From positions 1 to 64,000 of the forward strand of contig JAJYPP010000005.1 in the NCBI GenBank assembly GCA_021795235.1: a DNA stretch of 64,000 nucleotides, read 5' to 3'. Made by a program: the position numbers and the translations under genes. Positions within the stretch are counted from its first letter, which is position 1. Every line of letters begins with the position of its first letter. The notes under the pieces are model-generated. The model was not told the origin of the DNA, did no database searches, and saw only the letters and a program-made list of their open reading frames with translations. Origin of the DNA: a bacterium (GTDB lineage Bacteria > Chloroflexota > Dormibacteria > Aeolococcales > Bog-877). This document shows, piece by piece, positions 3,336-47,052 of the stretch.

Positions 3336-3424
3336 GGCTCCCAGTGAACACCATGGAGGGCCTTCGTGTCCAGTCCCTGCAGGCCCTGGGAAGGCCGGAC
3401 CCTACGGGGTCACCGAATACTTAC

Positions 3425-3432
3425 GGTTGAAG
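3425..3432. repeat. Right 8-bp target site duplication GGTTGAAG
   Basis: Identical to 786..793. Confidence 0.93.
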
Positions 3433-3608
3433 AATGTCCTGACGGAGACGTCCGCTACCTCCGCGATGTCCTCGACGGTCACCTGCTGCAGGCCCCGCTG
3501 GGCGACCAAGCGGAGGGCCGCCGCCCGCAGCGCCTGGTGGGTCTCCAGCTTCTTACGATCGCGCCGTCCAAGGTTTATGGCCGTCATGTACTCAATCTAC
3601 GCCGGTGC

Positions 3609-3621
3609 TGCAGTCACTGCA
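3609..3621. promoter_or_regulatory. Palindrome TGCAGT-C-ACTGCA upstream of the disrupted tetR, candidate operator
   Basis: Perfect 6-1-6 dyad 22 nt upstream of the tetR start. Confidence 0.4.
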
Positions 3622-3812
3622 ACTTTACAGATCGTGCAGCGACCGCTAGACTCCGCGCCGTATCCCGACGCGGCCGGCCCAAGCGCCCAACTGGCCGCGA
3701 CGCGCGGCCGGCCCTCGGTGTCATTCCTTGGTGAGGGAACGATCGCCCCAGGGTGCGATTCTCGCTGAGTCAATGCGGCCCCTGCCGGCAGCGCTTCAGC
3801 TTGGAGGCGCGG

Positions 3813-7623: not shown

Positions 7624-8838
7624 CTACCTCCCGGATGACGGTGTGAAGTCGCGGAGGGCGGCGACTCCGGGCAGGCTGCGACCCTCCAGGAACTCCAGAG
7701 TTGCCCCCCCGCCAGTGCTCACATGGGTGAATCGCGAAGTGAGTCCCAGCCCCTCTATGGCCGCCTGGAGATCACCCCCGCCGGTGACGCTGATGGCACT
7801 ACTGCCCGCGATCGCCTGCGCAACGGCTCGGGTCCCCCCTGCGAACAAGGGATTCTCGTACACCCCCAGGGGGCCGTTCCAGACCACCGTGCCCGCCCCA
7901 GCCACCAGCTCAGCCCACTCCAAGCAGGTCGCGTCGCCTATGTCAAGCAGCATGTCCCGTTCCGGGATCGACGTGACCGGGCAGCGACTAACCTGGTCGG
8001 GGCCTGCCTGGGGACCGGGGCCCACAACCGCATCCACCGGCAGATGGAATCCCATCTGCAAGCTTCCGGACCGTGACTGGATGGCGGTTGCCTGTTCCAG
8101 GAAATCCTCCTCCACCAGGGAGCGACCGGTCCCCACGCCGGCGGCGCGCAGGAACGTGGCTGCCATCGCGCCGCCCAGGCAGAGCCCGTCCACCGTCGGC
8201 AGCAGGTGGGTGATTACCCCGAGCTTGGTGCTCAGCTTGCTCCCACCCATGATCGCGAGCAGGGGCCGCACCGGGTCGTCCAGGATGCGACCCAGCTGCT
8301 CCAGCTCCCCGGCCATCAGCCGGCCGGCGTAGGCAGGCAGGATGTGAGCCACCCCCTCCGTGGAGGCGTGGGCTCGATGGGCGGTGCCGAAGGCGTCGTT
8401 GACGAACACGTCGGCGAGGGCGGCCAACTCCAGCGCGAAACCGGGGTCGTTGGCCTCCTCCTCGGCACAGAATCGCACATTTTCCAGCATCATCACCTGG
8501 CCTGGTCCGAGCGCTCCGGCCATGCCCACAGACTCGGGGCCGGTGACTTCCGGGCTGTGCTCAATCGGCCGCTCCAGGAGCTCGGACAGCCGGCTGGCCA
8601 GGGGAGCGGTGGTCAGGGCCGGCACGACCCGGCCTCTGGGCCTGCCCAGATGGGTCACCAAGACCACTGCCGCCTCGCGCTTGATCAGCTCCTTGATGGT
8701 AGGGAGAGCCGCCCGGATGCGCGCGTCGTCGCGCACCGCTCCCCCATCTGTGAGCGGCACGTTGAAGTCCACTCGCACCAAGACCTTCGCGCCGTCCACC
8801 GGAGCCAGGTCCAGGCCCGCCTTCATGGGCGCTGCCAT
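7624..8838 (-). CDS. pgk: Phosphoglycerate kinase
   Basis: VLVRVDFNVPL, LVTHLGRPRG, IMGGSKLSTKL, TGGGDLQAAIEGLGL; start assigned to MAAPMKAG or the internal MKAG. Confidence 0.94.
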   Translation of the reverse strand: MAAPMKAGLDLAPVDGAKVLVRVDFNVPLTDGGAVRDDARIRAALPTIKELIKREAAVVLVTHLGRPRGRVVPALTTAPLASRLSELLERPIEHSPEVTGPESVGMAGALGPGQVMMLENVRFCAEEEANDPGFALELAALADVFVNDAFGTAHRAHASTEGVAHILPAYAGRLMAGELEQLGRILDDPVRPLLAIMGGSKLSTKLGVITHLLPTVDGLCLGGAMAATFLRAAGVGTGRSLVEEDFLEQATAIQSRSGSLQMGFHLPVDAVVGPGPQAGPDQVSRCPVTSIPERDMLLDIGDATCLEWAELVAGAGTVVWNGPLGVYENPLFAGGTRAVAQAIAGSSAISVTGGGDLQAAIEGLGLTSRFTHVSTGGGATLEFLEGRSLPGVAALRDFTPSSGR

Positions 8839-8849
8839 CTCGGGTCTGG

Positions 8850-9878
<1,029 letters not shown>

Positions 9879-12870: not shown

Positions 12871-15750
12871 TCAGACCGCCACCGCCGCTCGGCGCTTGAC
12901 CGGCCGCGACGCCGCCCGCCGCAGCAACGGACCGAGGAACTCTCCGGTCGGGGAGTGGCGGGTCCGGGCCACGGCCTCCGGAGGGCCCTCAGCGACCACC
13001 ATCCCTCCCCCATCGCCCCCCTCTGGGCCGAGCTCAACAATCCAGTCCGCTGACTTCAGCACGTCCAGATTGTGTTCGATCACGACCACGGTGTTGCCCT
13101 GGTCCACCAGGCGGTGCAGCACCTCCAGGAGACGACTGACATCAGCAAAATGGAGGCCGGTGGTGGGCTCGTCCAGGATGTACATGGTGTTGCCGGTGCT
13201 GCGCCGGGAGAGTTCGGTCGCCAACTTCACGCGCTGAGCCTCGCCGCCGCTGAGCTGGGTCGCGGCCTGACCCAGATGCACGTACCCCAAGCCCACGTCG
13301 CTCAGAGTCTGCAGCTTGCGGGCGATCGCCGGCTGGTTGCGGAAGACCTCCAGCGCCTCCGACGCCGAGAGAGCGAGGACGTCCGCGATGGAGTGCCCCT
13401 TGAAGCGCACCTCCAGCACCTCGTGGGTGTAGCGCTGACCCTTGCACACTTCGCAGGTGACGTAGATATCGGGCAGGAAGTGCATCTCGATCTTGATCAA
13501 GCCGTCGCCCTCGCAGGCCTCGCAGCGTCCGCCCCGCACGTTGAATGAGAAGCGTCCGGGCCGATAGCCTCTCACCCGGGCCTCCGGCAGCTGGGCGAAG
13601 AGCTCCCGAATCGGGGTGAAGAGCCCGGTGTAGGTGGCCGGGTTGCTCCTTGGAGTCCGCCCGATGGGAGCCTGATCCACGTCGACGACCTTGTCCAGCT
13701 GACCCAGGCCCTCGATGCGGTCGTGGGCGGAGGGACGTTGCTTGGCGGAGTAGAAATGTTGGGCCAGGCGCCGGTAGAGGATGTCGTTGACCAAGGTGCT
13801 CTTGCCCGAACCGCTGACACCGGCGACTCCCACCAGGCAGCCCAGAGGGATGTCCACGTCGATGTCCTTGAGATTGTTGGCGCGGGCGCCACGTACCGTG
13901 ACGGTCCCGGACGGTCGCCGGCGGTGGCGCGGGACCGGGATCGCCAGCCGTCCTGTCAGGTACTGCCCCGTCACCGACCGCGGCACCTCCATCACCTCGG
14001 CCACTGTCCCGGCGGCCACCACCTCGCCTCCGTGCTCCCCAGCTCCGGGCCCCATGTCGACCACGAAATCCGCGGCCCGGATGGTCTCCTCATCGTGCTC
14101 CACCACCATCACGGTGTTGCCCAGGTCACGCAGCCGGAAGAGCGTGGCGAGCAGCTTGGCGTTGTCTCGTTGATGGAGACCGATGCTGGGCTCGTCGAGG
14201 ATGTACAGGACGCCTGTGAGGCGACTCCCGATTTGCGTCGCCAGCCGGATGCGCTGGGCCTCGCCTCCGGACAGAGTGGCGGCTCCTCGATCCAGGGTCA
14301 GGTACTGCAGCCCGACATCGCGGAGGAACCCGAGCCGCTCGCGGATCTCCTTCAGGATCCGGCGCGCGATCTCCTGCTCTCGATCCGGCAGCTGCCAGGA
14401 CTCCACCTCGACCAGGGAGCGCTCCACTGGCAGCGAGCAGAGATCCATGATTCCCGTCCCACTGACGGTGACAGCCAGGAACTCGGGCCGCAGTCTTCGC
14501 CCCTTACAGGTGGGACAGGGGCGTTGCATCATCAGCTTCTCAATCCCCTCTTTCACGGACTCCGATTCGGTTTCGCGGTAGCGCCGCTCAAGGTTGGGAA
14601 TGATGCCTTCGAACTTGGCCCGGTACTGGTGCACCCTCCCGCGGGATGTGCGCATCGACATAGCAACCGTCTGACCTGGCTTCAGGCCGTAGAGGATCAG
14701 CTCCTGTTGCGCCCGGGTCAGCGAGGACCAGGGACGGTCAAGGGGGATCCGGTGCTCGCCGCAGACCGTCCTGACCAGATCGTCCATCCACTGCTGGGCC
14801 GGTCCCCAACTCCAGCCTGACGCGGCGCCTTCGGCGATGGACCGCTCAGGGTCGTGGATCAGCGACTCGGGGTCCACTTCCAGCTTGGCCCCCAGACCGG
14901 TGCAGGCTGGGCAGGCGCCGTGGGGATTGTTGAAGGAGAAGTTGCGGGGCTGTGGTTCCTCCATGGAGATGCCGTCGTAGACGCACGCGAACCTTTGCGA
15001 GAAGAGCAAGTCCTCCATCCCCGAACTGGGATCGGCCGACGCCACCACCACGGTGCCGCTAGCTAGCCCCGCCGCCTGCTCGCATGACTCGCGCAGACGC
15101 GAGATGTCGGAGCCGTCCACGACCAGCCGGTCGACCACGATCTCCAGGTCGTGCTTGTAGCGCTTGTCCAGGGCCGGGATGCCATCCAGCTCATGAACCG
15201 TCCCATCGACCCTCATCCTCACGTAACCCTGCCGACGGGCCTGGTCGATGATCCCCAGGTGCTCTCCCTTCCGGCTCTGGATCATGGGTGCCAGGATGAG
15301 GATGCGAGAGCCAGCGGGAAGCTGGGCCACCTGGTCGGCGATCTGCTCCACTGTCTGGCGGGAGATCTCGCGGCCGCACTTGGGACAGTGGGGATGGCCG
15401 ACCCGGGCGTAGAGCAGCCGGAGGTAGTCGTAGATCTCGGTGACCGTGCCCACCGTCGACCGGGGGTTCCGGCCCGCGCCCTTCTGGTCGATCGAGATCG
15501 CCGGCGAGAGGCCGTCGATGTGATCCACGTCCGGCTTCTCCATCTGCCCCAGGAACTGGCGGGCGTATGCCGAAAGCGACTCCACATAGCGGCGCTGGCC
15601 CTCCGCGTAGATGGTGTCGAAGGCCAGGGACGACTTGCCCGAGCCACTGAGCCCAGTGATTACGGTGAGCCGATCCCGGGGGATGTCGATGTCGACATCC
15701 CGCAGGTTGTGCTCGCGCGCTCCTCTCACCGCGACGAATGCCTGGGCCAT
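12871..15750 (-). CDS. uvrA: Excinuclease ABC subunit UvrA
   Basis: MAQAFVAVRGAREHNLRDVDIDIPRDRLTVITGLSGSGKSSLAFDTIYAEGQRRYVESLSAYARQFL; second ABC domain with GVSGSGKSTLVNDIL. Confidence 0.97.
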   Translation of the reverse strand: MAQAFVAVRGAREHNLRDVDIDIPRDRLTVITGLSGSGKSSLAFDTIYAEGQRRYVESLSAYARQFLGQMEKPDVDHIDGLSPAISIDQKGAGRNPRSTVGTVTEIYDYLRLLYARVGHPHCPKCGREISRQTVEQIADQVAQLPAGSRILILAPMIQSRKGEHLGIIDQARRQGYVRMRVDGTVHELDGIPALDKRYKHDLEIVVDRLVVDGSDISRLRESCEQAAGLASGTVVVASADPSSGMEDLLFSQRFACVYDGISMEEPQPRNFSFNNPHGACPACTGLGAKLEVDPESLIHDPERSIAEGAASGWSWGPAQQWMDDLVRTVCGEHRIPLDRPWSSLTRAQQELILYGLKPGQTVAMSMRTSRGRVHQYRAKFEGIIPNLERRYRETESESVKEGIEKLMMQRPCPTCKGRRLRPEFLAVTVSGTGIMDLCSLPVERSLVEVESWQLPDREQEIARRILKEIRERLGFLRDVGLQYLTLDRGAATLSGGEAQRIRLATQIGSRLTGVLYILDEPSIGLHQRDNAKLLATLFRLRDLGNTVMVVEHDEETIRAADFVVDMGPGAGEHGGEVVAAGTVAEVMEVPRSVTGQYLTGRLAIPVPRHRRRPSGTVTVRGARANNLKDIDVDIPLGCLVGVAGVSGSGKSTLVNDILYRRLAQHFYSAKQRPSAHDRIEGLGQLDKVVDVDQAPIGRTPRSNPATYTGLFTPIRELFAQLPEARVRGYRPGRFSFNVRGGRCEACEGDGLIKIEMHFLPDIYVTCEVCKGQRYTHEVLEVRFKGHSIADVLALSASEALEVFRNQPAIARKLQTLSDVGLGYVHLGQAATQLSGGEAQRVKLATELSRRSTGNTMYILDEPTTGLHFADVSRLLEVLHRLVDQGNTVVVIEHNLDVLKSADWIVELGPEGGDGGGMVVAEGPPEAVARTRHSPTGEFLGPLLRRAASRPVKRRAAVAV

Positions 15751-31686: not shown

Positions 31687-32790
31687 TCACGGCACATAGA
31701 GGGCGTAGCTCCTCCCAGTCTTCGCTCGGCGAATCGACCCAGCTTCGGCCAGCCAGTAGCAGTGCTCAGAGACACCAGGTTGGTCTAGACCGATCACCTT
31801 CCCCAGTTGTGACTGAATAGTCCCAGGGTGGGCACGGACGTAGAGCAGAATCGGGCGCACATCCCGGAAAGACTGCCTGGCTGGATCGATCAGGTGGCAC
31901 CATGGCGCGAGCGCCTGGGTGCCATCAAGGATTGAGGCGATCCTATTCAGGGCAGCTTCATCCTGCAGGATAGGTGCCAGTAGAAGCCCCGTCCACGCCG
32001 AGCGGAAGAGCGGTGGTCTCCACTCCGGTCGTGACTGGCCCTTGGACTGGGCCTCTCTACGGTAGTAGGCCTCGGACTGAAGCATTGACGCCAGAAACTG
32101 GGGGAGCATCTCGACAGCCTTGACCGCGAGCGCGAGAGCGCCACGAAGGTCGCGCTCGCCACCAGATCCCCCTGAGTAGGCGGTGTACATTCGGTCCTCA
32201 AGCTCATAGAACAGCCCACGACGGTGCTCGCGCTCCGCCTCGGCGGCCCACTTGGCCTCCTTGGCAAGCCACTCTGCCTCGTAGGCAGCCCAGCGCGCTC
32301 GGGCTTGCTGCGACTCAGCTTCCTCAGCAGTGCTGCGCCCTCTGGGTTGTGCCTCCGCCGCCTCGGCAGCTGGCCGAGCTTCTCGCCCCGGGCGAGTAGA
32401 ACGATTCAGCCCGAGAAGGTCGTACTGTCGGCGGAGAGCCGAGTCTTTGAGGATGTCGTGGGCCCCGTTGATGGCTTGCGTCCGCGCCGTGGCAATTGCG
32501 CTCAGATTACGGTCAGGGTGCCACGTGCCTACCTGAGTTCGCCAGCCCGTTCTTATCTCATGCGCCGTGGCTTGGGGCCCAACGCCGAGCAGCGCGTAGA
32601 GGTCGTCTGACCTAACGCCATCGGGAAAGAGCACCGCTCTAGTTTGGCACTGGCACCGCCACACGAGGTCCTGACTTGGGGACGAGTGAGAGCGACCGTC
32701 GATCACCTCCAGCGGCAAGGTACAGATCGAGCACAAGGACGAGGTCCGGCAAGCGCACAGGTCTCCCGATGTCGAGGACGCGGTGCTCAT
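31687..32790 (-). CDS. J-domain protein with N-terminal Cys cluster and C-terminal winged-helix-like region
   Basis: CACRTSSLCSICTLPLE...WRCQCQ cysteine cluster; DLYALLGVGPQATAHEIRTGWRTQVGTWHPDRNLSAI...ALRRQYDLLGL J domain; Glu/Ala-rich helix; C-terminal LLYVRAHPGTIQSQLGKVIGLDQPGVSEHCYWLAEAGSIRRAKTGRSYALYVP. Confidence 0.78.
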   Translation of the reverse strand: MSTASSTSGDLCACRTSSLCSICTLPLEVIDGRSHSSPSQDLVWRCQCQTRAVLFPDGVRSDDLYALLGVGPQATAHEIRTGWRTQVGTWHPDRNLSAIATARTQAINGAHDILKDSALRRQYDLLGLNRSTRPGREARPAAEAAEAQPRGRSTAEEAESQQARARWAAYEAEWLAKEAKWAAEAEREHRRGLFYELEDRMYTAYSGGSGGERDLRGALALAVKAVEMLPQFLASMLQSEAYYRREAQSKGQSRPEWRPPLFRSAWTGLLLAPILQDEAALNRIASILDGTQALAPWCHLIDPARQSFRDVRPILLYVRAHPGTIQSQLGKVIGLDQPGVSEHCYWLAEAGSIRRAKTGRSYALYVP

Positions 32791-33759
32791 GGACCTCTCG
32801 GTCCCTTCCTTCCTGACCACCGGCCCACTTCCCGGAGCCATGCCCGGGGGGCAGGCGACAAGTTCGAGGGCGACGCGGTCCGCTGGCGTGGTGACCCCGG
32901 CAACTGGCCACGGACTTTGGCGAGGTGGTCTCGCACTTCGGTGCCGACGTTCCGGACGCGTGCAACGCCTGGCTCACTTCTCGGGGGTCATGGCAACCTC
33001 ATCCACCGTGACGGTCACCACTATGCCAAGGTTAGGTGTATGGGCCAAAGAGCCGATGTGGATTCGTTCTCGGCTGCAGCCGCTTGCGATAGTGCTTCCG
33101 CATTGCGCTTCACACTCGGACGGTCAAGTGCGCCTTTCCCGGGGTACGTGAGCACACGTTTGAGACAAGGGAGCGCAGCGTCGAGTTCTGCCCGGATCAC
33201 CGCAACGCAGGAGTGCGGCTCCGATTGGCCGTCGCTCAAGGTGGTCCAGCGGCCAAGGCCAGGGCCGCAGCCGCGCTACCGCCCCCCGACACAGGACTGC
33301 TCTGCCGTAAGTGCCACCACGCCCCCAGCGGTCCCCTCTGCTATACGTGCCTAATGGGCGACCCATCTCTAAGCAGACAGCGAAGACTTGGGTTCGGTCG
33401 TCCCACGAGATCAGGTAAGTGCTCCAAGAACCGCTTAGCCCATTGAACTGTCAGCTACAACACAGGCCCTACCATCGTCCCGTTGCTGCAGCGGCCCAGA
33501 CCGACAAGGTGCCCCAAGCTCCGACGCGGGTCGGCTGGCCCCACGCCAAGGTCAGGGAGAGAGTTCGAGTCAGATCGTTATCCTCAGTCACCGGGGCGCA
33601 AGTCAGCTCAGCACTGCCAAGACAGCCTCAGGGCCGCCGGGCTGGACTCCAGCGACGGCTGCAGCCGGAAGGTCGCGCTTGAGCCCGCGAAGATGTCAAT
33701 GACGATGTCAAATGCCCCCGACAGGGGCTGGATAATGCCCTGGCTGAGATCAATAGAGC

Positions 33760-35173: not shown

Positions 35174-37480
35174 TCACTGCCCCGATCCGGGCAGTTGGAC
35201 TGGCGCCTCGACACCGGCCTGACGGCTCGCGCCCCCACTTGGTCCGGTCACCTCCGGGCTCGCGGTGACCGCACCCGGCTGCTCTCGCCCCAGCAAGTGA
35301 ATGTCCACCTCCTCCGCCTGTTGGATCACCTCTAGCACCAGCGGGTGGTCCCAGGGCATCCACCTCCGAGCCCGCGGGGCGAGCATGAAGATCGCGGTCA
35401 CCTCGTGCTCTCGAGCCCACCGCAGCAGCGAAGCTGCCATACCACCCTGCTGCGGCAGTGGCTCGAGCCTGACCTCTCGCGAAGCGGCCAGTTTGGCGAG
35501 CTGTTCGTACTCGTGCAAGTCGGCTGGCCCTGGGTGGAGAGGGACGATGGCGATGACGATCACGCTCGCATCCTCACGCGCGGCGGCGCGCAGTCCCGCC
35601 TCCAAGAGTTGCTTTGCCTGCTCGTGGCGCCCGGGCGTGAGCGCCACCATGATGCGCTCCTCTACGGGCCAGAGATTGCGGCTTCCCTCGGCGACGAAGT
35701 AGCGCTGACGGCGCTGTTCCGTATGGGTGGCAACCCGGCGCAGCGCCGCACTCCTGAGCTCTTCCAGAAGCGGACCTGAGAACTCCTCCATGGCTGAAGC
35801 CACCTGGTCCGCTTCGGCGAGCAGGCCCGCGTGCACGCGCTCCCGCAGCTCCGCTGGCGGCAGGTCAACCAGCTCGATCTCGTCGGCCGAGTCCAACAGC
35901 CGTGGGGGGATCGGAGCCCGCAGCCACGCCGCATCTCCGCGGAACCTACCAAGCCTCGCCCTTGCATCCTCAAACCCGGGTAGGTCCACCACTCCGACGG
36001 TGCCGACTACATTGACCCCGGCGTTCAACACGCGCCTGATCTGCTGGTACCTGGTGCGATGCGTCTCCACGTCTCGGATTCCCAGGTCGTCAACGCAGAG
36101 GACGCTCGGGTTCCGCCGCAATACCGCCGCGATGTCGATCCCGCCGGTCCCCAGAGCGGGCACTACCTTCAATTGGCTGAGCAGGGCATCCAGCCCCGGT
36201 CGGCCCCCACTGGCCACCACAACCACCTCCGCGCCTCGGCGTTGCCTGCGCAGGGCCTCCTCCAGCAGCCGCGTCGACTTCCCGACTCCCGGCGCATAGC
36301 CCAAATAGAGGCGCAGAGTTCCGCGCACCGCTCTGCTCCCGCTCCCCAGCAGGAGAGCTTGAGGGTCGGGTCGACCATCGTCGAGCGGAGACGCTCTGGT
36401 GCCCAAACGCCGTCCGATGACGTGGAGATGCCGACCGCCCAGCTTGCGCAGCAGCCCGGCCACCAGCGACCGACCGAGGCTGTCGCGGAGAGATGGCGCT
36501 CCCGCCGCCACCACTAGATGAGTCGCGCCCAATGAATCCGCCCGCGCCAGCGCCTCGGCCAGAGGATCACCAGACACCTGCAGCTCCAGCTGGGCCCCTA
36601 GGTCGGACGAGAGTTGCCGGATCACCTCCAGATCCTGGTCCGCCGGTCTCTGTTGGTGCATGACCATGACCGTCACCGGGGCGCGAAGCCGACGCCCCAT
36701 CCGCACCCCGCGACGGATCAACCCGGGAGCCGCCGCACTGCAGGAGGTGACTATCAGGACCCGATCCGCCGAGGTGGCCTCCTCCCGACCGCCCGTGCGG
36801 GACCGGTGCTGAACCACGTACCAGATCGCCAGCTCCCTGAGAGCTGCCAGATTGCCCTCGCGGAAAAAGTTCTGGAGTGCCGCTTCCACGCGCTCCAGTG
36901 GGTACACGTTGCCATGCCGCAACCGCTTCCGGAGGGCCTCCGGGGTGATGTCGGCCAGGGTGATCTCGTCGGCTTCGTCCAGGACGTGGTCTGGCACGGT
37001 CTCTCGGACGGCCACTCCTGTGGCGCGCTCGACGATGTCCCTAAGGCTCTCCACGTGCTGGATGTTCACGGTCGTCCAGACCTCGATCCCTGCACAGAGC
37101 AGCGCCTCGACATCCTCCCACCGCTTCTGGTGCCCAGCGCCAGGCACGTTTGTGTGGGCGAGCTCGTCGACTAGGGCGATGGCCGGGTGCCTCCTCAGGG
37201 CGGAATCCAGGTCGAGTTCATCGACCCCGATCCCCCGATACTCGAGCCGTCGCGTCGGGATTCGCTCGAGCCCGTCGGCAGCCTCTTCGGTGCGCGGCCG
37301 ACCATAGGTCTGCAACCAGACGACGGCGACATCCCCGCCCTCGGCACGGAGGCGCTGTGCCTCCTGAAGCATCGCGAATGTCTTCCCCACGCCAGGCGCA
37401 GCGCCCACGAAAACCTTCAGCCGTCCTCTTGCCGGAGCGCTGGCGCTGGCAGTGGTCAGGGCGGCTGAGCTGTCAGTCAT
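35174..37480 (-). CDS. Tandem KdpD-sensor/USP protein lacking a histidine kinase
   Basis: KdpD sensor 1 LKVFVGAAPGVGKTFAMLQEAQRL...LVDELAHTNVPG; sensor 2 LRLYLGYAPGVGKSTRLLEEALRRQRRGAEVVVVASGG...LCVDDLGIRD; each followed by a USP-like region; no H-box or HATPase region. Confidence 0.85.
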   Translation of the reverse strand: MTDSSAALTTASASAPARGRLKVFVGAAPGVGKTFAMLQEAQRLRAEGGDVAVVWLQTYGRPRTEEAADGLERIPTRRLEYRGIGVDELDLDSALRRHPAIALVDELAHTNVPGAGHQKRWEDVEALLCAGIEVWTTVNIQHVESLRDIVERATGVAVRETVPDHVLDEADEITLADITPEALRKRLRHGNVYPLERVEAALQNFFREGNLAALRELAIWYVVQHRSRTGGREEATSADRVLIVTSCSAAAPGLIRRGVRMGRRLRAPVTVMVMHQQRPADQDLEVIRQLSSDLGAQLELQVSGDPLAEALARADSLGATHLVVAAGAPSLRDSLGRSLVAGLLRKLGGRHLHVIGRRLGTRASPLDDGRPDPQALLLGSGSRAVRGTLRLYLGYAPGVGKSTRLLEEALRRQRRGAEVVVVASGGRPGLDALLSQLKVVPALGTGGIDIAAVLRRNPSVLCVDDLGIRDVETHRTRYQQIRRVLNAGVNVVGTVGVVDLPGFEDARARLGRFRGDAAWLRAPIPPRLLDSADEIELVDLPPAELRERVHAGLLAEADQVASAMEEFSGPLLEELRSAALRRVATHTEQRRQRYFVAEGSRNLWPVEERIMVALTPGRHEQAKQLLEAGLRAAAREDASVIVIAIVPLHPGPADLHEYEQLAKLAASREVRLEPLPQQGGMAASLLRWAREHEVTAIFMLAPRARRWMPWDHPLVLEVIQQAEEVDIHLLGREQPGAVTASPEVTGPSGGASRQAGVEAPVQLPGSGQ

Positions 37481-37670: not shown

Positions 37671-38348
37671 TCAGGCCACGAACCGGTACCCCATCCCCGG
37701 CTCTGTCAAGAAGTACCGTGGCCGCGATGGGATCGGCTCAAGCTTGCCTCGAATCTGGGCCATGTACACCCGCAGGTAGTTGGACTGGCCCACGTGGTGA
37801 GGCCCCCACACTTCCTCGAGCAGCTGCCGCTGGGAGACCAGCTTGCCCGAATGCCGTACCAACGTCTCCACCAAGTGCCACTGAGTGGGTGTGAGACGGA
37901 CCATCTCGCCCCCCCTCAGCGTCACCAGCTTCTTGGCCAGGTCGACGGCGAAGTCATCGGTCTGCACCACCGCGGCCTCGGCGGCCGGCGCCGCGCGCCG
38001 CAGCGCAGCTCGAATGCGGGCCAGCAGTTCGTTCATCGCGAAGGGTTTGGTGACGTAGTCGTCCGCCCCGGCATCCAGCACTGCCACCTTCTCCTCCTCG
38101 CTCGCACGCGCCGAGAGGACCAGGACCGGCATCTGTGACCATGCCCGCAGCGCACAGACCACCTCGCTGCCGTCGATCCCAGGTAGCCCCAGGTCCAGGA
38201 TGACGAGATCCGGATGGCTGGCAGGGGCACTCCTCAGCGCCTCCTCGCCCGTCGCACAGGCCTCGACCTTGAACCCGTGGGCGCGCAGGATGGTTGAGAG
38301 GGCCCGCAGAAAGGCGGGCTCGTCATCCACCAGCAGGATGGTGCTCAC
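37671..38348 (-). CDS. kdpE: Response regulator KdpE (OmpR family)
   Basis: VSTILLVDDEPAFLRALSTIL...DLVILDLGLPGIDG...VRLTPTQWHLVETLVRHSGKLVSQRQLLEEVWG; GTG start overlaps the kdpD stop. Confidence 0.93.
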   Translation of the reverse strand: MSTILLVDDEPAFLRALSTILRAHGFKVEACATGEEALRSAPASHPDLVILDLGLPGIDGSEVVCALRAWSQMPVLVLSARASEEEKVAVLDAGADDYVTKPFAMNELLARIRAALRRAAPAAEAAVVQTDDFAVDLAKKLVTLRGGEMVRLTPTQWHLVETLVRHSGKLVSQRQLLEEVWGPHHVGQSNYLRVYMAQIRGKLEPIPSRPRYFLTEPGMGYRFVA

Positions 38349-40966
38349 GCCGTCGCCACGATCTCCGTCCGGGCTGGGTAGGAAGCTACGGGAAGTCGAA
38401 ACACCATGGTGCAACCCCCACCAGGCGTGTCCTCCACCTCCAGGGTTCCTCCCATCGCAGTCACGAATCCACGAGCCACGGCCAGGCCCAGTCCGACGCC
38501 GCTACCGCGTGGAGAATCACCGCGCCGCTGAAAGGGCCGGAATACCGCCAGGCGATCTTCTGGGGCTATTCCGGGGCCGTGGTCGACCACCCTCAGGATG
38601 ACACGGTCCCGCACTACCCCCGCCTCCAAGACTGCGGGACGATCACGCGGGGACCATTTCAGCGCGTTGTCCACAACATTGGCCACCGCTCGCTCCAGCA
38701 GTGTCGGGTCTCCGAGCACGGGCACGAGGGACTCGGGAACCCGGACTCGCAGGGAGCCGCTGGGGTCGTGGCGTCCGGCCAGGGCAGCCGCCACTATTCC
38801 GTCGAGGCTCAAAGGGTGGCTGGCGAGCCGGACCGCCCCCGCCTGCAGCCGGCTGATGTCAAGCAGGTTTCCCACCAGGGTGCCCAACCGGTCGGCCTCA
38901 GAGCTGATGGTGGCGAGTAGCTCGTGCTCGGCTTCATCTGTCCACTCGACGCCATCGTCCAAGAGGCTGCTCGCGGCTGCCTTGATGGACGCCAAGGGCG
39001 TCCGCAGGTCGTGCGACACTGCCGCCAGCGTGGCGCCCCGGAGGCCCTCATTGGCGACCAGATTGGCAGCCTCACGAGCCTCACGTTCCAGTCGCGCCAG
39101 TTCCGCCGCCACTCCGACCAGGGCCGAACTTGTCTGGAGCAGACGCTGGTCCGCGGCGCTGGGGGCTCCTCCCCTCAGTGCCACTGTGAGGCCCTCGGAA
39201 ATCTTCAGACTCTCGTCCGCCTCGTCTGGGGATCCCGGCGGCGCCGGGCCCCGGGCGGCCAGGACGCGCCAGCCACCCGCCGCTGGCGCCAGCACCGCCA
39301 CGCTCTCCATGCCCAGGTTGACTCGCAAGTCCTCGACGATCCGGTCCAACGCACCCACACCGCACTGGAGGTGGGCAGCCGTACGAGCCAGTGCCTCAGC
39401 TTCAAAGCGGGCTCGCCGCGACCCCAAGTTCATCAGGGTCATCCCCTGCAGCACCACCGCGGAGCTGCTCACCAGAACCAACGCCACGGTCGCTGCCCCA
39501 CCCACGCTGGGTCCCACCAAATGGGGTAGCTGTGCATCGATGAGGCCAGCAGTACCAAGCGCCACGGCTCCGGCAGCCAAAGCGCGCCGTGGCCCCCCCA
39601 CCAGCGCGAGCGCCGCTACCGGGGGCAGGGCCGCCAGGACTTGAACCAACGCCCCCGAGGACTCGGCCGCCACCGTCACCACCACCACGATCGCCCCCAG
39701 AGCCCATGCCACCAGGCCGCGGCCCAGCCGGAGCTGTCCGGTCCACCCGATCAGGGCAACCCGGTGCCGGGCTGCCGCACCGTGGGAGATGACGTGAAGG
39801 TCCAACTGACCTGCCCCGCGAAACAGGTTGCCCAGAACAGATCGCCAGGGCCATCCTGCCGGCCCTGACCCGCGGCAAACTCCCACCACCAAGCGGGTGG
39901 CCCGTTGAGCGCTGCAGAAGGCGAGCAGGGCGCCCGCGACGTCGCGCCCACGGATTTCGTGAAAGGTCCCCCCCAACCCCGCCACCAGATCACGCTGGGC
40001 CTGCAGCGAGGTGGCCCGGCCGCGGTACGGACGCCGGGACGTCTGCACGTTGACGGCCAGCAGGTCACCCTTGTTTCTCATGGCCATCCGGCTGGCCCGC
40101 CGGATTCGCTCCAAGTCCTCCACTTCACCAGCTACGCCCACAACCACGCGCTCGCGCGTTTCCCACCGCTCGGAGATCCCGTGATCGTCCTTGTAGCGCT
40201 CCAAGGACTCATCGACTCGGTCGGCCACCCAAAGCAGGGCCAGCTCCCGGAGAGCGGCCAGGTTGCCCAGGCGAAAGTAGTCGCCCAGTGCGGCATCGAT
40301 CTGCTCAGGAGGGTAGATGTTGCCGTGAGCGAGGCGGCGCCTCAGTGCCTCCGGGGCCATGTCGATGAGCTCAATCCGGTCAGCCGATCGCACCACCGCG
40401 TCGGGGATGGTGTCCGCCGCCGCCGTCCCGGTGATCTGAGCCACCACGTCCACCAGCGAGTCCAAGTGTTCGATGTTGAGCGTGGATATGACATCGATCC
40501 CGGCCTCCAGCAGGCGGGAGACCTCCCCCCAGCGCTGGCCTTGGCGGCCCCTCGCGGCATGCTTGTGAGCCAACTCATCCACCAGGGCCACCTGGGGACG
40601 CCGGCGCAGTACAGCTTCGACATCCATCTCGTCAATGCCGTCCACCCGGAGGCAGGGGACCACCTCCATGTCCGTTGCCTCCAGCGCCGTGCGCCCCCGG
40701 CCGTGCGGATCCAGGACCGCCACCACCACGTCGGTGCCACGAGCGCGACGGCGCCGACCCTCGCTCAACATGGCCCAGGTCTTGCCCACACCGGGGGCGT
40801 AGCCCAGATAGATCCCCAGGCTACCCCGGGGCGAGGCTCGCCTGACCTCCCCAGGACCCATCCCGAATACCGACTGCGTCACTTCGACATCCCCAGTCCC
40901 GGCCACTCGCGACCGACCCACCGACACTGCCAGCGTACCCGGGTAGGGCCATGGGCCGGGGACCAT
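38345..40966 (-). CDS. kdpD: Sensor histidine kinase KdpD
   Basis: LGIYLGYAPGVGKTWAMLSEG, USP region, TM segments, AAVSHDLRTPLASIKAAASSLL, NVVDNALKWSP, GSGVGLGLAVARGFV. Confidence 0.95.
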   Translation of the reverse strand: MVPGPWPYPGTLAVSVGRSRVAGTGDVEVTQSVFGMGPGEVRRASPRGSLGIYLGYAPGVGKTWAMLSEGRRRRARGTDVVVAVLDPHGRGRTALEATDMEVVPCLRVDGIDEMDVEAVLRRRPQVALVDELAHKHAARGRQGQRWGEVSRLLEAGIDVISTLNIEHLDSLVDVVAQITGTAAADTIPDAVVRSADRIELIDMAPEALRRRLAHGNIYPPEQIDAALGDYFRLGNLAALRELALLWVADRVDESLERYKDDHGISERWETRERVVVGVAGEVEDLERIRRASRMAMRNKGDLLAVNVQTSRRPYRGRATSLQAQRDLVAGLGGTFHEIRGRDVAGALLAFCSAQRATRLVVGVCRGSGPAGWPWRSVLGNLFRGAGQLDLHVISHGAAARHRVALIGWTGQLRLGRGLVAWALGAIVVVVTVAAESSGALVQVLAALPPVAALALVGGPRRALAAGAVALGTAGLIDAQLPHLVGPSVGGAATVALVLVSSSAVVLQGMTLMNLGSRRARFEAEALARTAAHLQCGVGALDRIVEDLRVNLGMESVAVLAPAAGGWRVLAARGPAPPGSPDEADESLKISEGLTVALRGGAPSAADQRLLQTSSALVGVAAELARLEREAREAANLVANEGLRGATLAAVSHDLRTPLASIKAAASSLLDDGVEWTDEAEHELLATISSEADRLGTLVGNLLDISRLQAGAVRLASHPLSLDGIVAAALAGRHDPSGSLRVRVPESLVPVLGDPTLLERAVANVVDNALKWSPRDRPAVLEAGVVRDRVILRVVDHGPGIAPEDRLAVFRPFQRRGDSPRGSGVGLGLAVARGFVTAMGGTLEVEDTPGGGCTMVFRLPVASYPARTEIVATA

Positions 40967-41700
40967 GAACGGCCCGCCACTCCAAGCAGCTGGCCATAAG
41001 TTCTGTCCTTGATCTGGAGGCGGCAGGCGCCCGGATGCGGAGGCAACGGGCTGGGCTGGGGGCGCAGGTACCGCGGTGGCTCAGCCTGGTAGGGCCATTG
41101 AGGAAGGTGGTCCGAGATTGTGGGCGCGCCGCTGGGACGCGGGATGCTGGCCTTCACCCCCGGCCGACTGGTGGGGCGATTGCCGCCGAGGCTCAGGCGG
41201 TTGCCACCCTCAGCTCGGGCACCGGCCTGCTCAGGACCGCCACCCGCCCCACCGCGCTGTCCCAGCACTGCCTGCGCGCAACCAGAGTGCCCAAGACCCT
41301 GGCCGATCGCACGCACCGCCGCCCCGGCTGTGGTCTGGTCGGAGGCCGGGACCTGGTGGCGGCGGCTCTGGGGGCGTTCGTGACCTTCCTCGATCCCCTC
41401 GACCCGGGCACGGCCCGGGCCCACTACCAAGCTGCCAGGCTCGCCCTGGCCAGATCCCAGGGCAGCCCGGGCCGAGTCAAGTGCTGCTCCGCCAGAACGT
41501 CTCCGCAGACGTCGCGACGGGAGGGCACAGACCAGCGCCAGGAGGCGCCGGGCTGCTCGGCAAAGTGCCGGGTCGGCACCTCCTACCACTCCGGATAAGC
41601 TCCCAACGGCACTCGCCCGAGGGGACGGCGCCGGCGCACCGGTGGTGGCTGCCGGACCTGACCAGCGTCTTGCCCAAGGACAAGACTTATGACCGGGTGC

Positions 41701-41790
41701 TCAGAGGCGGTCAGGATACAGCATCGCGTAGAAGAGAAATGCCACCAACCCAACACTGACCACCAAACCCACCCACTCGATCCCGCTCAT
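41701..41790 (-). CDS. kdpF: KdpF small subunit
   Basis: 29 aa MSGIEWVGLVVSVGLVAFLFYAMLYPDRL, KdpF-like; absent from the ORF track because of its length. Confidence 0.8.
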   Translation of the reverse strand: MSGIEWVGLVVSVGLVAFLFYAMLYPDRL

Positions 41791-41833: not shown

Positions 41834-41926
41834 TCACAACCTGTCGCAAGCTCGCGCGTACACATCGAATAGCCAAAAGAGACCGATCACGACCAGCGCC
41901 CCTGCGCCCCACTCCAACACGACCAC
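41834..41926 (-). CDS. Small single-TM peptide in the kdp locus
   Basis: GTG start, 30 aa (M/V)VVLEWGAGALVVIGLFWLFDVYARACDRL between kdpC and kdpF. Confidence 0.5.
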   Translation of the reverse strand: MVVLEWGAGALVVIGLFWLFDVYARACDRL

Positions 41927-41950: not shown

Positions 41951-42532
41951 TCAGGAGCGGCTGAGCTTCTGGACCGCTACGTTCAGCTCCAACACGTTCA
42001 CGTACGAACCGCCGAAGATTCCCAGGAACCGTCCCTTCGTGTACTGATGGATCAGAGCCCGTAGCCGACTCTGACTCACATGGTCGGCCCGAGCCACCCG
42101 GGGCACTTGGACCAACGCCGCAGCCGGGGTGATGTCGGGGTCCAGACCGCTGCCCGAGCTCTCCAACAAACTGAGCGGCACCTGGCTCGCGCGCACTCCC
42201 GGATTCGCCTTGAGGAAGGCCTGCAGGCGCGCCTTCACATGGGCGACAAGCAACGAGTTGGTCGGGCCCAGGTTACTGGCTGCTGATGAGGCGCCGTTGT
42301 AGGCCGGCGTGGTGGCGCTGGGACGTCCCCAGAAGAAGCCCGGGGAGGTGAACTCCTGTCCGATCAGGCGTGACCCCACGACCCGACCATTAGAGGTAAC
42401 CAGGCTGCCGGCAGCCTGGTGCGGGAAGACCGCGCTGGCCACCCCCGTGATCAAGAAGGTGTATCCGACCCCCAGAACCAGGGACGCGAGGATCACCAAG
42501 CGGACCGCCGACCAAATGCTCCGCAAAGTCAT
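41951..42532 (-). CDS. kdpC: Potassium-transporting ATPase subunit KdpC
   Basis: GSRLIGQEFTSPGFFWGRPSATTPAYNGASSAASNLGPTN...SGSGLDPDITPAAALVQVPRVA. Confidence 0.94.
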   Translation of the reverse strand: MTLRSIWSAVRLVILASLVLGVGYTFLITGVASAVFPHQAAGSLVTSNGRVVGSRLIGQEFTSPGFFWGRPSATTPAYNGASSAASNLGPTNSLLVAHVKARLQAFLKANPGVRASQVPLSLLESSGSGLDPDITPAAALVQVPRVARADHVSQSRLRALIHQYTKGRFLGIFGGSYVNVLELNVAVQKLSRS

Positions 42533-42647
42533 CGTGCCACCTCCGCTAGTCCAAACGGTTCTCGGTCCCGGCGCCCCCGCTGCAGCCATGCACTGGCCCG
42601 CCCCACGGATAGCGATTCCGACAGGTGCCAGCGGTAGTTGGTAGCCA

Positions 42648-44747
42648 TCATCGCACCGTCGAGACCAGGTGTAGGGCCGTCACTATGACGTCGATCAACT
42701 TGATGCCCGCAAACGGCACCACCAGACCTCCCAGCCCGTAAATGAGCAGGTTCTTGCGCAGAATCACCGCCGCACTAGCCGGGCGATAGCGCACCCCGCG
42801 CAGCGCCAGCGGAATCAGCGCAGGGATCACCAGCGCGTTGAAGATGATGGCCGAGAGGATGGCAGTCTGGGGTGACGTGAGCTGCATGATGTTGAGCGCA
42901 TTCAGACCTGGGTATGCCACCATGAACATCGCGGGAATTATTGCGAAGTACTTGGCCACGTCATTGGTGACCGAGAAGGTGGTAAGCGCTCCCCGGGTGA
43001 TCAGGATTTGCTTGCCCACCTCCACGATCTCGATGAGCTTGGTCGGTTGGGAGTCCAAGTCCACCATATTGCCCGCTTCGCGCGCGGCCATGGTCCCGGT
43101 GTTCATCGCGACCGCAACGTCCGCGCTGGCCAGCGCGGGAGCGTCATTGGTCCCGTCCCCGACCATGGCGACCATGTACCCCTCGGCCTTCATGGACTTC
43201 ACGTATTCCATCTTCCGCTCCGGGGTCGCCTCAGCCAGGAAGTCATCAACCCCGACCTCTGCCGCCACCGCGGCCGCGGTGACCGGATTGTCGCCGGTCA
43301 CCATCACGGTTCGAATCCCGGCCTGGCGGAGCGACTCCAACTTCTCACGGATCCCCTGCTTGACCACATCCTTGAGATGAATCGCTCCCAGGATGCGCCC
43401 GGGCTCCGCGACCAGCAGAGGGGTACCCCCGGTACCCGCTATCCGTCCCACCTGCTCTCGCAGAGCAGGGTCCGGCGCCTGCCCGCACCAGCCCACCACC
43501 GAGTCCACCGCGCCCTTGCGGATCTGCCGCCCTTGGACATCCACACCACTCATCCTGGTCTCGGCCGTGAAGGGCACAAAAATCATGTCCTCAGCAGCTC
43601 CTGGGGCACGCTCCTTGAGTCCGTACTGGGCCTCTGCCAGCGCCACCACCGACCGCCCCTCCGGAGTCTCGTCGGCCAGGGACGAGAGCTGAGCGGCCTC
43701 GGCCAGGTCAGCGGCGGTGACACCCTCCGCAGGCACGAACTCGGTGGCCTGGCGGTTACCCAGGGTGAGAGTCCCGGTCTTGTCCAGCATGATCACGTTG
43801 GCGTCGCCCGCAGCCTCCACCGCTCTGCCTGAGAGGGCCAGAACATTGCGCTCGAAGAGGCGGTTGACGCCAGAGATGCCGATAGCGGAAAGGAGGCCGC
43901 CGATCGTGGTCGGCGCCAGCGCCACCAGCAGGGCGATCAACACCGTGACTGAGACCGTGGCGTGGGAATAGGCCGCGAACGGGGCCACGGTGACCACCAC
44001 TATCAGGAAGATCAGCGTGAGTCCGGCGAGCAGGAGAGCGAGAGCGATCTCGTTGGGGGTCTTCTGACGCTTGGCAGACTCGATCAGGGTGATCATCTTG
44101 TCCAGGAAGGACTCCCCCGGGGAAGCGGTGATACGTATGGTCAAGCTGTCCGAGATCACCCGCGTGCCGCCGGTGACAGCGCTGCGGTCGCCGCCGGACT
44201 CTCTGATCACCGGTGCGGACTCGCCGGTGATCGCGGACTCGTCCACGGCGGCTATGCCGGCGATGATCTCGCCGTCTCCCGGGATCACGTCGCCGGTGCT
44301 GACGTGAACGACGTCATCCTTCCGCAGGTCTGATGCGCCAACCACCTCGACGGTGCCGTCGGCCCTTTCCCGGTTCGCGGTCGTCTGGGTTCGCGACTGG
44401 CGCAGGAACTGGGCATGGGCCTCGCCCCTCCCCTCTGCCATGGCCTCGGCGAAGTTCGCGAACAGGACGGTCAGCCACAACCACAGGGAGATCTGGAGGA
44501 CGAAGGAGAACTGGGCCATATTGCCAGCAATCGCGTAACGCCCGGCGTCGACGGTGGTGAACGCACTGCCCACCTCCACCACGAACATGACTGGATTGCG
44601 AACCAGGGTCCTGGGATTGAGCTTGGCAAACGCCTGGCGCGCGCCCCGCCGCACCGACTCGGAACTCCAGAAGGACTGCTGACGCGGCTTGCTGGCAGCC
44701 TCTGCCGGTTCCATCACTGCCGTGGGCGTCTCGCTGTCAGCATTCAC
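42648..44747 (-). CDS. kdpB: Potassium-transporting ATPase subunit KdpB (P-type ATPase)
   Basis: [52 protein letters not shown]. Confidence 0.97.
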
Positions 44748-44792: not shown

Positions 44793-46496
44793 TCAGAAAA
44801 CATGGCCGGCCTGCATGATGAACTGCTCTGCCAGCGGGCCCAGCGCCAACGCCGGGAAGAAGACCAGAGCGCCCACCACCACCACCGTCCCGGTGAGCAG
44901 GCCCACAAAGAGCGGTGTGTGGGTGGGGAAGGTGCCAGCGGTTACGGGAATGCGCTGCTTCCGGGCCAACGCTCCTGCCATCGCCACCAGTGGGATGTAC
45001 ATCGGGTACCTTCCCAGCAGCATCGCCAAGCTCACCGTCCCGGCGTACCAGGGACTGGCCGCGTTGAGACCCCCAAACGCCGAACCGTTGTTGCCCACCC
45101 CCGAGCTGAAGGCATAGAGGACTTCCGATAGTCCGTGGGGGCCGGGATTGAGTATCCCCGCCCGACCCGCGGTCGTCAGCACCGAGATGGCGGCCAGGAT
45201 CAGGATCGCGAAACTGGGCACGATCATGGCCAGCACCGACATCTTGACCTCGAACGACTCTATCTTCTTACCCAGGAACTCAGGCGTGCGCCCGACCATC
45301 AGGCCAGCCAGGAAGACGGCCAGCACCGCGTAGGCGATCATCCCAACCATGCCCACACCCCACGAACCGAAGATGACCTCGCCCGTCATCATGTTGAACA
45401 GGGTCACCATTCCGCCCAGCGGAGTCAGACTATCGTTGGACGCCGCGACTGACCCCCACGACACCGCGGTGGTCGAGTTCTCGAAGAGCGAGGTCGTCCC
45501 GATGCCGAAGCGAGTCTCCTTGCCCACCCAATTGGCGTGGCCCGCAGCTCCCAGGTGGTTGATGATGGGATTGCCCACGGCCTCGGAGTGGTAGAGCAGG
45601 AGTGCGCCGGCCAAGAACATGATCGCCATGACCGCGTAGAAGGCCCAGCTCTGCCGGACGTCCTTGATCATCTTGCCGAACAGATAGATGCAGCCGGCGG
45701 GCACGGCGAAGCCCATTAGAAGCTGGACCACGAGGGCCAGCACGCTCGGGCCCGCATACGGCTGCGCCGCGTTCATGTTGAAGAACCCGCCACCGTTGTC
45801 GCCCAGCTGCATGATGGAGGTCATGGATGCAACCGGGCCCTGAGCGATGACCTGGTGGCCCCCTTGAAGGGTGGTCAAGTGCAGGTAGGCACTGAAGTTC
45901 TGCGGGCTACCCAGCGCCACCAGCACGATCGCCCCCAAGATCGCCAAGGGCACGGCCACCCACAGCAGGGCCCGCACGAAGTCGTGCCAGAAGTTGCCGA
46001 GGGTACCCGTCTGGTGGCGCGCGAAACCACGGGCCACCACCAGGAAGAGGCAGATGCCGGTGACCGGCGACAAGAACTGCTGGACCGTCAGCCACATCTG
46101 GGTGAGGTAGCTCATGGTGGCCTCGCCGCCATAGACCTGCCAGTTGGTGTTCGAGACGAAACTGATGGCAGTGTTCAGGCTCACCCAGAAGGGGACGCGG
46201 GGCTGGTGAGCCGGATTCAAGGGTAGGAATTGCTGCAGGCCAAGGAGCGCAAGCAGCAGGGCGAATCCGACCGCATTGACAATCAGAAGGTCGCGGAGGT
46301 AGGCGGTCCAACGCATCTCTTCGTCGGCCCTAATGCCACAGGCTCTATAGACTGCGCGTTCGACGGGGACCAAGACCGGGTCCAGGAAAGTGTGTCCGCC
46401 CTCAAAGACCCGGTACATGTAGCCCCCCAGGACGCGGGCGAGCACAGCCACGACCGCCAACAGCAAAAAGATCTGGACCACTCCCTGCCAGGTCAC
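44793..46496 (-). CDS. kdpA: Potassium-transporting ATPase subunit KdpA
   Basis: SFVSNTNWQVYGGE, QLGDNGGGFFNMNAAQPY, SSGVGNNGSAFGGL selectivity-filter motifs; start assigned to GTG (VTWQGVVQ). Confidence 0.95.
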   Translation of the reverse strand: MTWQGVVQIFLLLAVVAVLARVLGGYMYRVFEGGHTFLDPVLVPVERAVYRACGIRADEEMRWTAYLRDLLIVNAVGFALLLALLGLQQFLPLNPAHQPRVPFWVSLNTAISFVSNTNWQVYGGEATMSYLTQMWLTVQQFLSPVTGICLFLVVARGFARHQTGTLGNFWHDFVRALLWVAVPLAILGAIVLVALGSPQNFSAYLHLTTLQGGHQVIAQGPVASMTSIMQLGDNGGGFFNMNAAQPYAGPSVLALVVQLLMGFAVPAGCIYLFGKMIKDVRQSWAFYAVMAIMFLAGALLLYHSEAVGNPIINHLGAAGHANWVGKETRFGIGTTSLFENSTTAVSWGSVAASNDSLTPLGGMVTLFNMMTGEVIFGSWGVGMVGMIAYAVLAVFLAGLMVGRTPEFLGKKIESFEVKMSVLAMIVPSFAILILAAISVLTTAGRAGILNPGPHGLSEVLYAFSSGVGNNGSAFGGLNAASPWYAGTVSLAMLLGRYPMYIPLVAMAGALARKQRIPVTAGTFPTHTPLFVGLLTGTVVVVGALVFFPALALGPLAEQFIMQAGHVF

Positions 46497-47052
46497 TTTG
46501 GCCTCCTCTCTGCGGCCGGACGAGCGGCCTTGATTACCTGCCCCCACTGATAGCGCACCGCCCGGCCCAGGGGCAAGGGGCTTGGCGTGGTCTTAACTGG
46601 GCAGAGCCAAATCTTTACGAGACTTTGACGAGGGCAACTCGCCGCGTCTTCCGAGCGTCGACGGCTCAGGGTCGGGGCCAGCGGGCAAGACGAACCGCCC
46701 CACGGATGGACCCGAGGCGAGGGCTGGTGGGGGTGCGCCCTCCATCGGCAATGGGCGGCGGTCCCCACGCCCAGCTGCAGCAGCTCCGCTCTGCTTCGAT
46801 GAAGCCGTCGCGACCACCGACTTGGCCCGGCATGGCCATGCGCCGGTAGAGAGCCCCGCGGATCGGTCAAGTTCCAGACGGCAAGATGGCGGGGACCTCG
46901 GGGCGGCTCAGGATCACCAGCGCCGGCGGGACCGCCAAGCCCATGCGCGATACAACCGGCCGTGCCCCTGCCGCCAGCCGACCAGGGCTTCGCGGCCGCC
47001 TGGCCGTCGGAGAACCCATGACGGCGCCATGGACCAGCGCGCTCCCCTGGTC

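What the first reader, a model, noticed from the sequence alone, without database searches (positions are those of the whole stretch)
35174..37480. Kinase-less protein with two KdpD sensor domains and two USP domains
Internal duplication gives KdpD-USP-KdpD-USP with no TM segments, H-box or HATPase. Sensor 1 keeps APGVGKT and DELAHTN, while sensor 2 keeps APGVGKS but has DDLGIRD. It is encoded just downstream of a complete kdpDE. It may be a stand-alone nucleotide or ion sensor (KdpD-type USP/sensor domains can bind c-di-AMP) tuning the K+ response.
Basis: partly seen in the sequence, partly recalled or inferred. Interest (0 to 1): 0.6.

Follow-up and report, generated by a model that had tools for sequence, protein, structure and literature searches.

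The report
Two-unit serine-kinase protein beside Kdp pump
In a little-known class of bacteria (Dormibacteria), a potassium-pump operon carries a protein made of two fused copies of the domain that, in other bacteria, phosphorylates the pump to switch it off; the first copy looks catalytically complete while the second is a conserved but altered copy, so this is probably a pump-silencing serine kinase with a built-in regulatory partner rather than a kinase-less sensor.

Summary
In detail: window 35174-37480 (-) encodes a soluble 768-aa KdpD-USP-KdpD-USP protein with no histidine-kinase parts, just downstream of kdpDE. The interpretation needs changing. The PF02702 "sensor" domain was shown in 2024 to be an atypical serine kinase (ASK) that phosphorylates KdpB Ser162 and shuts KdpFABC (PMC11018627), so "kinase-less" is misleading. 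Unit 1 keeps every published ASK residue class in essentially all relatives. Unit 2 is one ancient sister clade with E->D in the catalytic pair almost everywhere. It also lacks the Walker-A lysine in families f2-f4, while the window's family f1 mostly keeps it. Unit 2 is under purifying selection like unit 1. The pair is a class-wide Dormibacteria feature, found where kdpABC is found and usually directly beside kdpC, fused in most families and split into two adjacent genes in part of f4. Sampled Chloroflexota outside the class have single-unit or full-length KdpD instead. Best reading: a stand-alone ASK plus pseudokinase-like regulatory unit that inhibits KdpFABC post-translationally. The phosphorylation itself is inferred. 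c-di-AMP control is open: the cyclase is present; the Firmicutes USP motif is absent, but so it is from Deinococcus short forms.

The parts
35174..37480 (-). Tandem protein KdpD-USP-KdpD-USP, 768 aa
   Evidence: ORF, Pfam, AlphaFold/Foldseek, homologues
36815..37429 (-). Unit 1 KdpD domain (PF02702), predicted catalytically complete atypical serine kinase
   Evidence: the genome search PF02702, 296.8 bits; residue table
37376..37405 (-). Unit 1 Walker A GAAPGVGKTF (K33, T34; F35 in the slot of E. coli W39)
37148..37171 (-). Unit 1 Walker B VDELAHTN (D105, E106 = E. coli D109, E110)
36908..36931 (-). Unit 1 RKRLRHGN; R186 = E. coli adenine-clamp R190
36410..36775 (-). USP domain 1 (about residues 236-357)
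   Evidence: AlphaFold secondary structure, Foldseek matches to 7ji4/USPs, alignment
35723..36325 (-). Unit 2 KdpD domain (PF02702), altered active site, pseudokinase-like
   Evidence: 139 bits; residue table; tree
36272..36301 (-). Unit 2 Walker A GYAPGVGKST (K401, S402; T403 in the W39 slot). Lysine kept in most of family f1, replaced by T/A in f2-f4
36071..36094 (-). Unit 2 Walker B VDDLGIRD (D465 in place of catalytic Glu110)
35822..35845 (-). Unit 2 RERVHAGL; R548 = retained adenine-clamp Arg
35276..35671 (-). USP domain 2 (about residues 604-735)
   Evidence: Pfam Usp weak, AlphaFold
37671..38414 (-). kdpE response regulator (true start probably the GTG near 38351)
   Evidence: Pfam Response_reg + Trans_reg_C; start choice is inference
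38345..40966 (-). Full-length KdpD histidine kinase with its own intact ASK domain and four hydrophobic segments
41701..41790 (-). kdpF (29 aa), between kdpC and kdpD
   Evidence: PF09604, 34.6 bits
41951..42589 (-). kdpC
   Evidence: PF02669
42648..44747 (-). kdpB; carries the phosphorylatable TGES loop
   Evidence: ORF; DESAITGES and DKTGT
44217..44219 (-). KdpB Ser177, equivalent of E. coli Ser162 (DESAITGES), the predicted target of unit 1
   Evidence: target role from PMC11018627
44796..46592 (-). kdpA (open frame, PF03814 at 44820-46466)

Best explanation
The protein is a stand-alone atypical serine kinase of the KdpD/USP type, encoded with the Kdp pump. Unit 1 (KdpD1-USP1) binds ATP and phosphorylates the TGES serine of KdpB (Ser177 here), shutting KdpFABC when potassium is ample. 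Unit 2 (KdpD2-USP2) is an ancient fused paralogue whose active site has drifted (Glu to Asp in nearly all copies, Walker-A lysine lost in three of four families). It most likely serves as a non-catalytic or weakly catalytic partner: a covalent pseudo-dimer half, nucleotide sensor or docking unit that controls unit 1. The input is most likely a nucleotide read by a USP domain or by unit 2, with c-di-AMP the leading candidate. Shown here: architecture, intact unit-1 residue set, altered but selected unit 2, linkage to kdpABC, presence of the target serine and of a diadenylate cyclase. Inferred: the phosphorylation, the direction of control, the role of unit 2 and the ligand.
For: E. coli KdpD NTD alone phosphorylates KdpB; Walker A (G36/K37/T38), W39/R190, D109 and E110 are needed; the short D. 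geothermalis KdpD/Usp form phosphorylates E. coli KdpB and is c-di-AMP stimulated (PMC11018627). Unit 1 keeps GKT, an aromatic (nearly always F/Y) in the W39 slot, DE and R190 in essentially all Dormibacteria copies, while all unit-2 copies depart from this set. KdpB has DESAITGES in all 23 Dormibacteria loci that show it, some loci being duplicates. Two-unit genomes have kdpC in 32 of 32, against 6 of 29 of the others (Fisher p 1e-11). The gene lies directly beside kdpC in most loci, the slot used by the short form in Deinococcus and Picosynechococcus. Unit 2 dN/dS 0.015-0.16, like unit 1 at 0.02-0.17. Unit 2 is one clade at SH-aLRT 100, present fused and split. Fold matches 2r8r and 7ji4. 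Diadenylate cyclase in 58/61.
Against: No activity data exist for any Dormibacteria protein. In the window's lineage the full-length KdpD also has an intact ASK domain, so a second kinase for the same target could be redundant. In the window the gene follows kdpE with a 190-nt gap, so co-transcription is not shown (no promoter-like site found, but the scan covers sigma-70 types only). In family f1 unit 2 mostly keeps Lys and Thr/Ser of Walker A, so it may still be active. Asp in place of Glu110 is untested in the paper read (only Ala). The Firmicutes c-di-AMP motif is absent. Co-occurrence counts are not corrected for relatedness.
Confidence: 0.55

Rival explanations
1. Both units are active serine kinases (at least in family f1), so the protein is simply a two-headed ASK with higher dose or avidity for KdpFABC; unit 2's Asp works in place of Glu.
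For: Window unit 2 keeps GKS, D464/D465 and R548; most f1 copies keep GKT; purifying selection.
Against: Lysine is lost in all f2-f4 unit-2 copies, the aromatic adenine-stacking residue is absent in unit 2, and E110A kills E. coli activity (PMC11018627). Unit 2 matches PF02702 at under half the score of unit 1 (139 against 297 bits).
Confidence: 0.15
2. One reading: a stand-alone nucleotide or ion sensor (c-di-AMP, ATP, K+) that tunes kdp expression through KdpDE and has no kinase activity.
For: USP domains match the c-di-AMP-binding fold 7ji4; the cyclase is encoded; linkage to kdpDE in the window.
Against: Most relatives carry the gene beside kdpC with no full-length KdpD next to it; unit 1 keeps the complete kinase residue set under strong selection; no K+ site is known in these domains.
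Confidence: 0.15
3. Unit 1 is a serine kinase and unit 2 has turned to another substrate or partner (for example a second transporter, or scaffolding KdpE or a USP as E. coli UspC does).
For: Unit 2 has its own conserved features, such as the PPxPG stretch of USP2 in f2-f4.
Against: Both units travel together with kdpABC, fused or adjacent; no other conserved partner was seen, though none was searched for systematically.
Confidence: 0.15

Closest known systems
Short KdpD/Usp atypical serine kinase (D. geothermalis Q1J2K3 type; PMC11018627)
   Same: PF02702 plus USP with no histidine kinase and no TM; complete ASK residue classes in unit 1; encoded with kdpABC, in relatives usually right beside kdpC; target TGES serine conserved; diadenylate cyclase in the genome
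   Different: Two units in one chain (or two adjacent genes in part of f4), with the second unit's active site altered; here it coexists with a full-length KdpD that has its own ASK domain
N-terminal domain of KdpD (E. coli residues 1-230; P. syringae structure 2r8r)
   Same: Fold (2r8r, 53-55% identity over unit 1) and catalytic residues, with Phe for Trp39
   Different: No TM, GAF, DHp or CA domains follow; instead a USP and a second KdpD-USP unit
NCBIfam NF038185 KdpD-like non-kinase potassium sensor
   Same: Same domains; best NCBIfam model for the protein (429 bits)
   Different: Model is a single 373-aa unit and the score is under its cut-off of 550; its name does not reflect the serine-kinase finding
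S. aureus KdpD USP domain (7ji4, c-di-AMP bound; PMC8214093)
   Same: USP fold (TM 0.80 of target)
   Different: Motif (A/G/C)xSxSxxN absent from both USP domains

Membership tests
Atypical serine kinase of the KdpD domain (ASK) | PF02702 fold | tested here: met
   Both units; 2r8r fold match
Atypical serine kinase of the KdpD domain (ASK) | Walker A GKT, Walker B DE, aromatic W39 slot, R190: unit 1 | tested here: met
   GKT, F, DE, R
Atypical serine kinase of the KdpD domain (ASK) | Walker A GKT, Walker B DE, aromatic W39 slot, R190: unit 2 | tested here: not met
   GKS, T in the W39 slot, DD; R kept
Atypical serine kinase of the KdpD domain (ASK) | Target TGES serine in the cognate KdpB | tested here: met
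   DESAITGES, Ser177
Atypical serine kinase of the KdpD domain (ASK) | Phosphorylates KdpB and inhibits KdpFABC | not testable with these tools
   Needs protein
Short KdpD/Usp form | One KdpD plus one USP, about 370 aa | tested here: not met
   Two of each in 768 aa; the split f4 genes come close
Short KdpD/Usp form | Encoded next to kdpC | tested here: inconclusive
   Met in most relatives; in the window kdpF, kdpD and kdpE lie between
Short KdpD/Usp form | Activity stimulated by c-di-AMP | not testable with these tools
   Cyclase present
KdpD histidine kinase | HisKA and HATPase_c domains | tested here: not met
   No match
KdpD histidine kinase | Four TM segments | tested here: not met
   No segment above threshold
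NF038185 KdpD-like non-kinase potassium sensor | Score over curated cut-off 550 | tested here: not met
   429 bits
Firmicutes-type c-di-AMP-binding KdpD USP | (A/G/C)xSxSxxN motif | tested here: not met
   Absent in USP1 and USP2 of all Dormibacteria rows; positive control Listeria innocua KdpD found

The most novel reading that the evidence does not exclude
A bacterial serine kinase-pseudokinase pair built from P-loop KdpD domains: unit 2 no longer transfers phosphate but binds a nucleotide and allosterically gates unit 1, much as pseudokinase domains gate kinases in eukaryotes, giving a class of bacteria a soluble, ligand-gated off-switch for the Kdp pump.
Probability: 0.35. Interest if true: 0.65.

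Novelty: new variant of a known kind. Interest (0 to 1): 0.5.

Why it matters
The serine-kinase role of the KdpD domain is recent (2024), and how its activity is controlled in proteins without K+-sensing parts is left partly open in that paper. A natural fusion of a complete unit to an altered one, found fused and unfused within one bacterial class, gives a direct way to ask what a second KdpD-USP unit does. It also warns that database names such as "non-kinase potassium sensor" hide a probable kinase.

Tried and rejected
c-di-AMP motif: the window's USP1 has SxS with the exact X20 spacing of the S. aureus SXS-X20-FTAXY motif, but it is not conserved even in close relatives and the A242, N249 and Y271 equivalents are missing, so it was treated as chance. 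c-di-AMP riboswitch: none in the window. A second copy in the same genome on contig C72: that contig is 100% identical over 10 kb to a contig of MAG LSA5.bin69 and the window's MAG has 7% contamination, so it was not counted as a paralogue in the same cell. Recent internal duplication: rejected by the tree. Decaying second half: rejected by dN/dS. Search of other phyla with the whole-genome tool failed because only handled genomes can be centres; absence outside Chloroflexota rests on one pattern scan of 84,980 species genomes that reaches close relatives only.

Full report
OBSERVATION. The ORF at 35174-37480 (-) is real: 768 aa, good ribosome-binding site, two PF02702 domains, a USP after each by alignment and fold, no HisKA/HATPase, no TM segment. 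The upstream genes on the same strand are kdpA (44796-46592), kdpB (42648-44747), kdpC (41951-42589), a 29-aa kdpF (41701-41790), kdpD (38345-40966) and kdpE (37671-38414). The genome is taken to be a Dormibacteria MAG: one of the closest named relatives is annotated Candidatus Dormiibacterota.

WHAT THE DOMAIN DOES. A 2024 paper (PMC11018627) showed that the KdpD domain is an atypical serine kinase. In E. coli it phosphorylates KdpB Ser162 in the TGES loop at high K+ and shuts the pump. Residues tested there are Walker A G36/K37/T38, W39/R190 and Walker B D109/E110. The isolated domain is active. A short KdpD/Usp protein from D. geothermalis also phosphorylates KdpB and is stimulated by c-di-AMP. 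The parts of the paper read describe several KdpD versions and do not mention a two-unit protein; its supplementary tables could not be read.

RESIDUES. On E. coli numbering, unit 1 has GKT, an aromatic residue (F or Y, V in one copy) in the W39 slot, DE and R190 in essentially all Dormibacteria copies. The exception is a second tandem copy in G037 (L124:13326) with DD. Unit 2 is different: Glu110 is Asp in all but two copies (G050 and G054, family f3), the W39 aromatic is lost, and R190 is kept. Lys37 is kept in nine of ten f1 copies (GKS in the window, GKT elsewhere, GRT in G003) but replaced by Thr or Ala in every f2-f4 copy, fused or split. So the window belongs to the family whose unit 2 is least altered.

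DISTRIBUTION AND CONTEXT. Of 61 genomes (window genome included), 32 hold both units and all 32 also hold kdpC. Six hold kdpC without the pair, and 23 hold neither (Fisher p 1e-11, not corrected for relatedness). I classified these by hand. Two genomes with unit-2-like fragments only (G036, G049) were counted as lacking the pair; the 32 include one frameshifted copy (G016), one copy divided between contigs (G001) and two split pairs (G053, G057). In most loci read, the pair lies directly beside kdpC: downstream and co-directional in f2/f3, convergent in most f1 loci. In five f4 genomes the two units are two adjacent ORFs, and in one f4 genome (G405) they are fused. A search of all 110 held genomes of the class gives the same picture. 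In 400 Chloroflexota genomes no fused pair was found outside the class; single-unit proteins (mostly 390-450 aa frames) or full-length KdpD occur instead, with one f17 genome (G092) carrying two adjacent intact single units and one f21 genome (G376) a diverged second unit nearby. In the window and one sister contig the tandem follows kdpABC and kdpDE, so this lineage has three KdpD domains. The full-length KdpD of the window groups, with moderate support (89), with single-unit genes of other f1 genera.

EVOLUTION. In the tree of 99 KdpD domains, all unit-2 copies (32 fused, 5 split) form one group at SH-aLRT 100. Unit-1 copies form one group at 96, which also holds one locus-edge row (L122). 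The duplication therefore predates the diversification of the families sampled (quick method, midpoint root, long branches flagged by the program for unit 2). dN/dS in 14 close pairs is 0.015-0.16 for unit 2 and 0.02-0.17 for unit 1; USP1 evolves faster, up to 0.40. Unit 2 is maintained, not decaying.

TARGET AND SIGNAL. KdpB carries DESAITGES in the window (Ser177) and in all 23 Dormibacteria loci with that stretch, some of which overlap. A diadenylate cyclase domain is found in 58 of 61 genomes including this one. The Firmicutes c-di-AMP motif of PMC8214093 is absent from both USP domains throughout. As a calibration, it is present in Listeria innocua KdpD and absent from the short KdpDs of D. 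radiodurans and Picosynechococcus. Since a Deinococcus short form responds to c-di-AMP, absence of the motif does not exclude that signal.

MECHANISM. The most likely reading is a stand-alone serine kinase (unit 1) for KdpB, with unit 2 as a covalently attached, non-catalytic or weak regulatory partner, possibly a pseudo-dimer half or nucleotide sensor. Architecture, residue conservation, linkage and selection are shown. Phosphorylation, ligand and the role of unit 2 are inferred.

LIMITS. The Dormibacteria genomes are draft assemblies and those that are named are metagenome-assembled. Presence outside Chloroflexota was tested only by one pattern scan. Co-occurrence and tree counts are not independent events. 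The literature search covers open-licence papers only. No complex with KdpB was modelled.

Noticed in passing
window 41701-41790 (-): A 29-aa kdpF lies between kdpC and kdpD, not before kdpA as in E. coli; a second short single-TM-like frame starts at 41926 (-) just before it.
   Followed up: partly
L124 (G037:C34) 13326-15617: A second, diverged tandem copy lies upstream of kdpA on the same strand; its unit 1 has Asp in place of the catalytic Glu.
   Followed up: partly
L114 (G376:C2) 8336-9796: A diverged KdpD unit with GTT in place of GKT sits 2.5 kb from an intact single unit in another Chloroflexota family (f21), possibly an independent degenerate second unit.
   Followed up: partly
L113 (G092:C65) 1180-3622: Two adjacent intact single-unit KdpD-USP genes near kdpABC in family f17.
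   Followed up: partly
L037/L045 (G016:C98): The tandem gene is broken into two reading frames in this MAG.
   Followed up: no
G000:C72 (L007): Contig is 100% identical over 10 kb to a contig of MAG LSA5.bin69; possible contamination of the window's assembly.
   Followed up: yes
window 31687-32841 (-): Protein with a DnaJ domain and a weak MarR-like C-terminal match.
   Followed up: no
window 40967-41700: About 730 bp between kdpF and kdpD without a recognisable gene (no convincing Pfam match in three long frames).
   Followed up: partly
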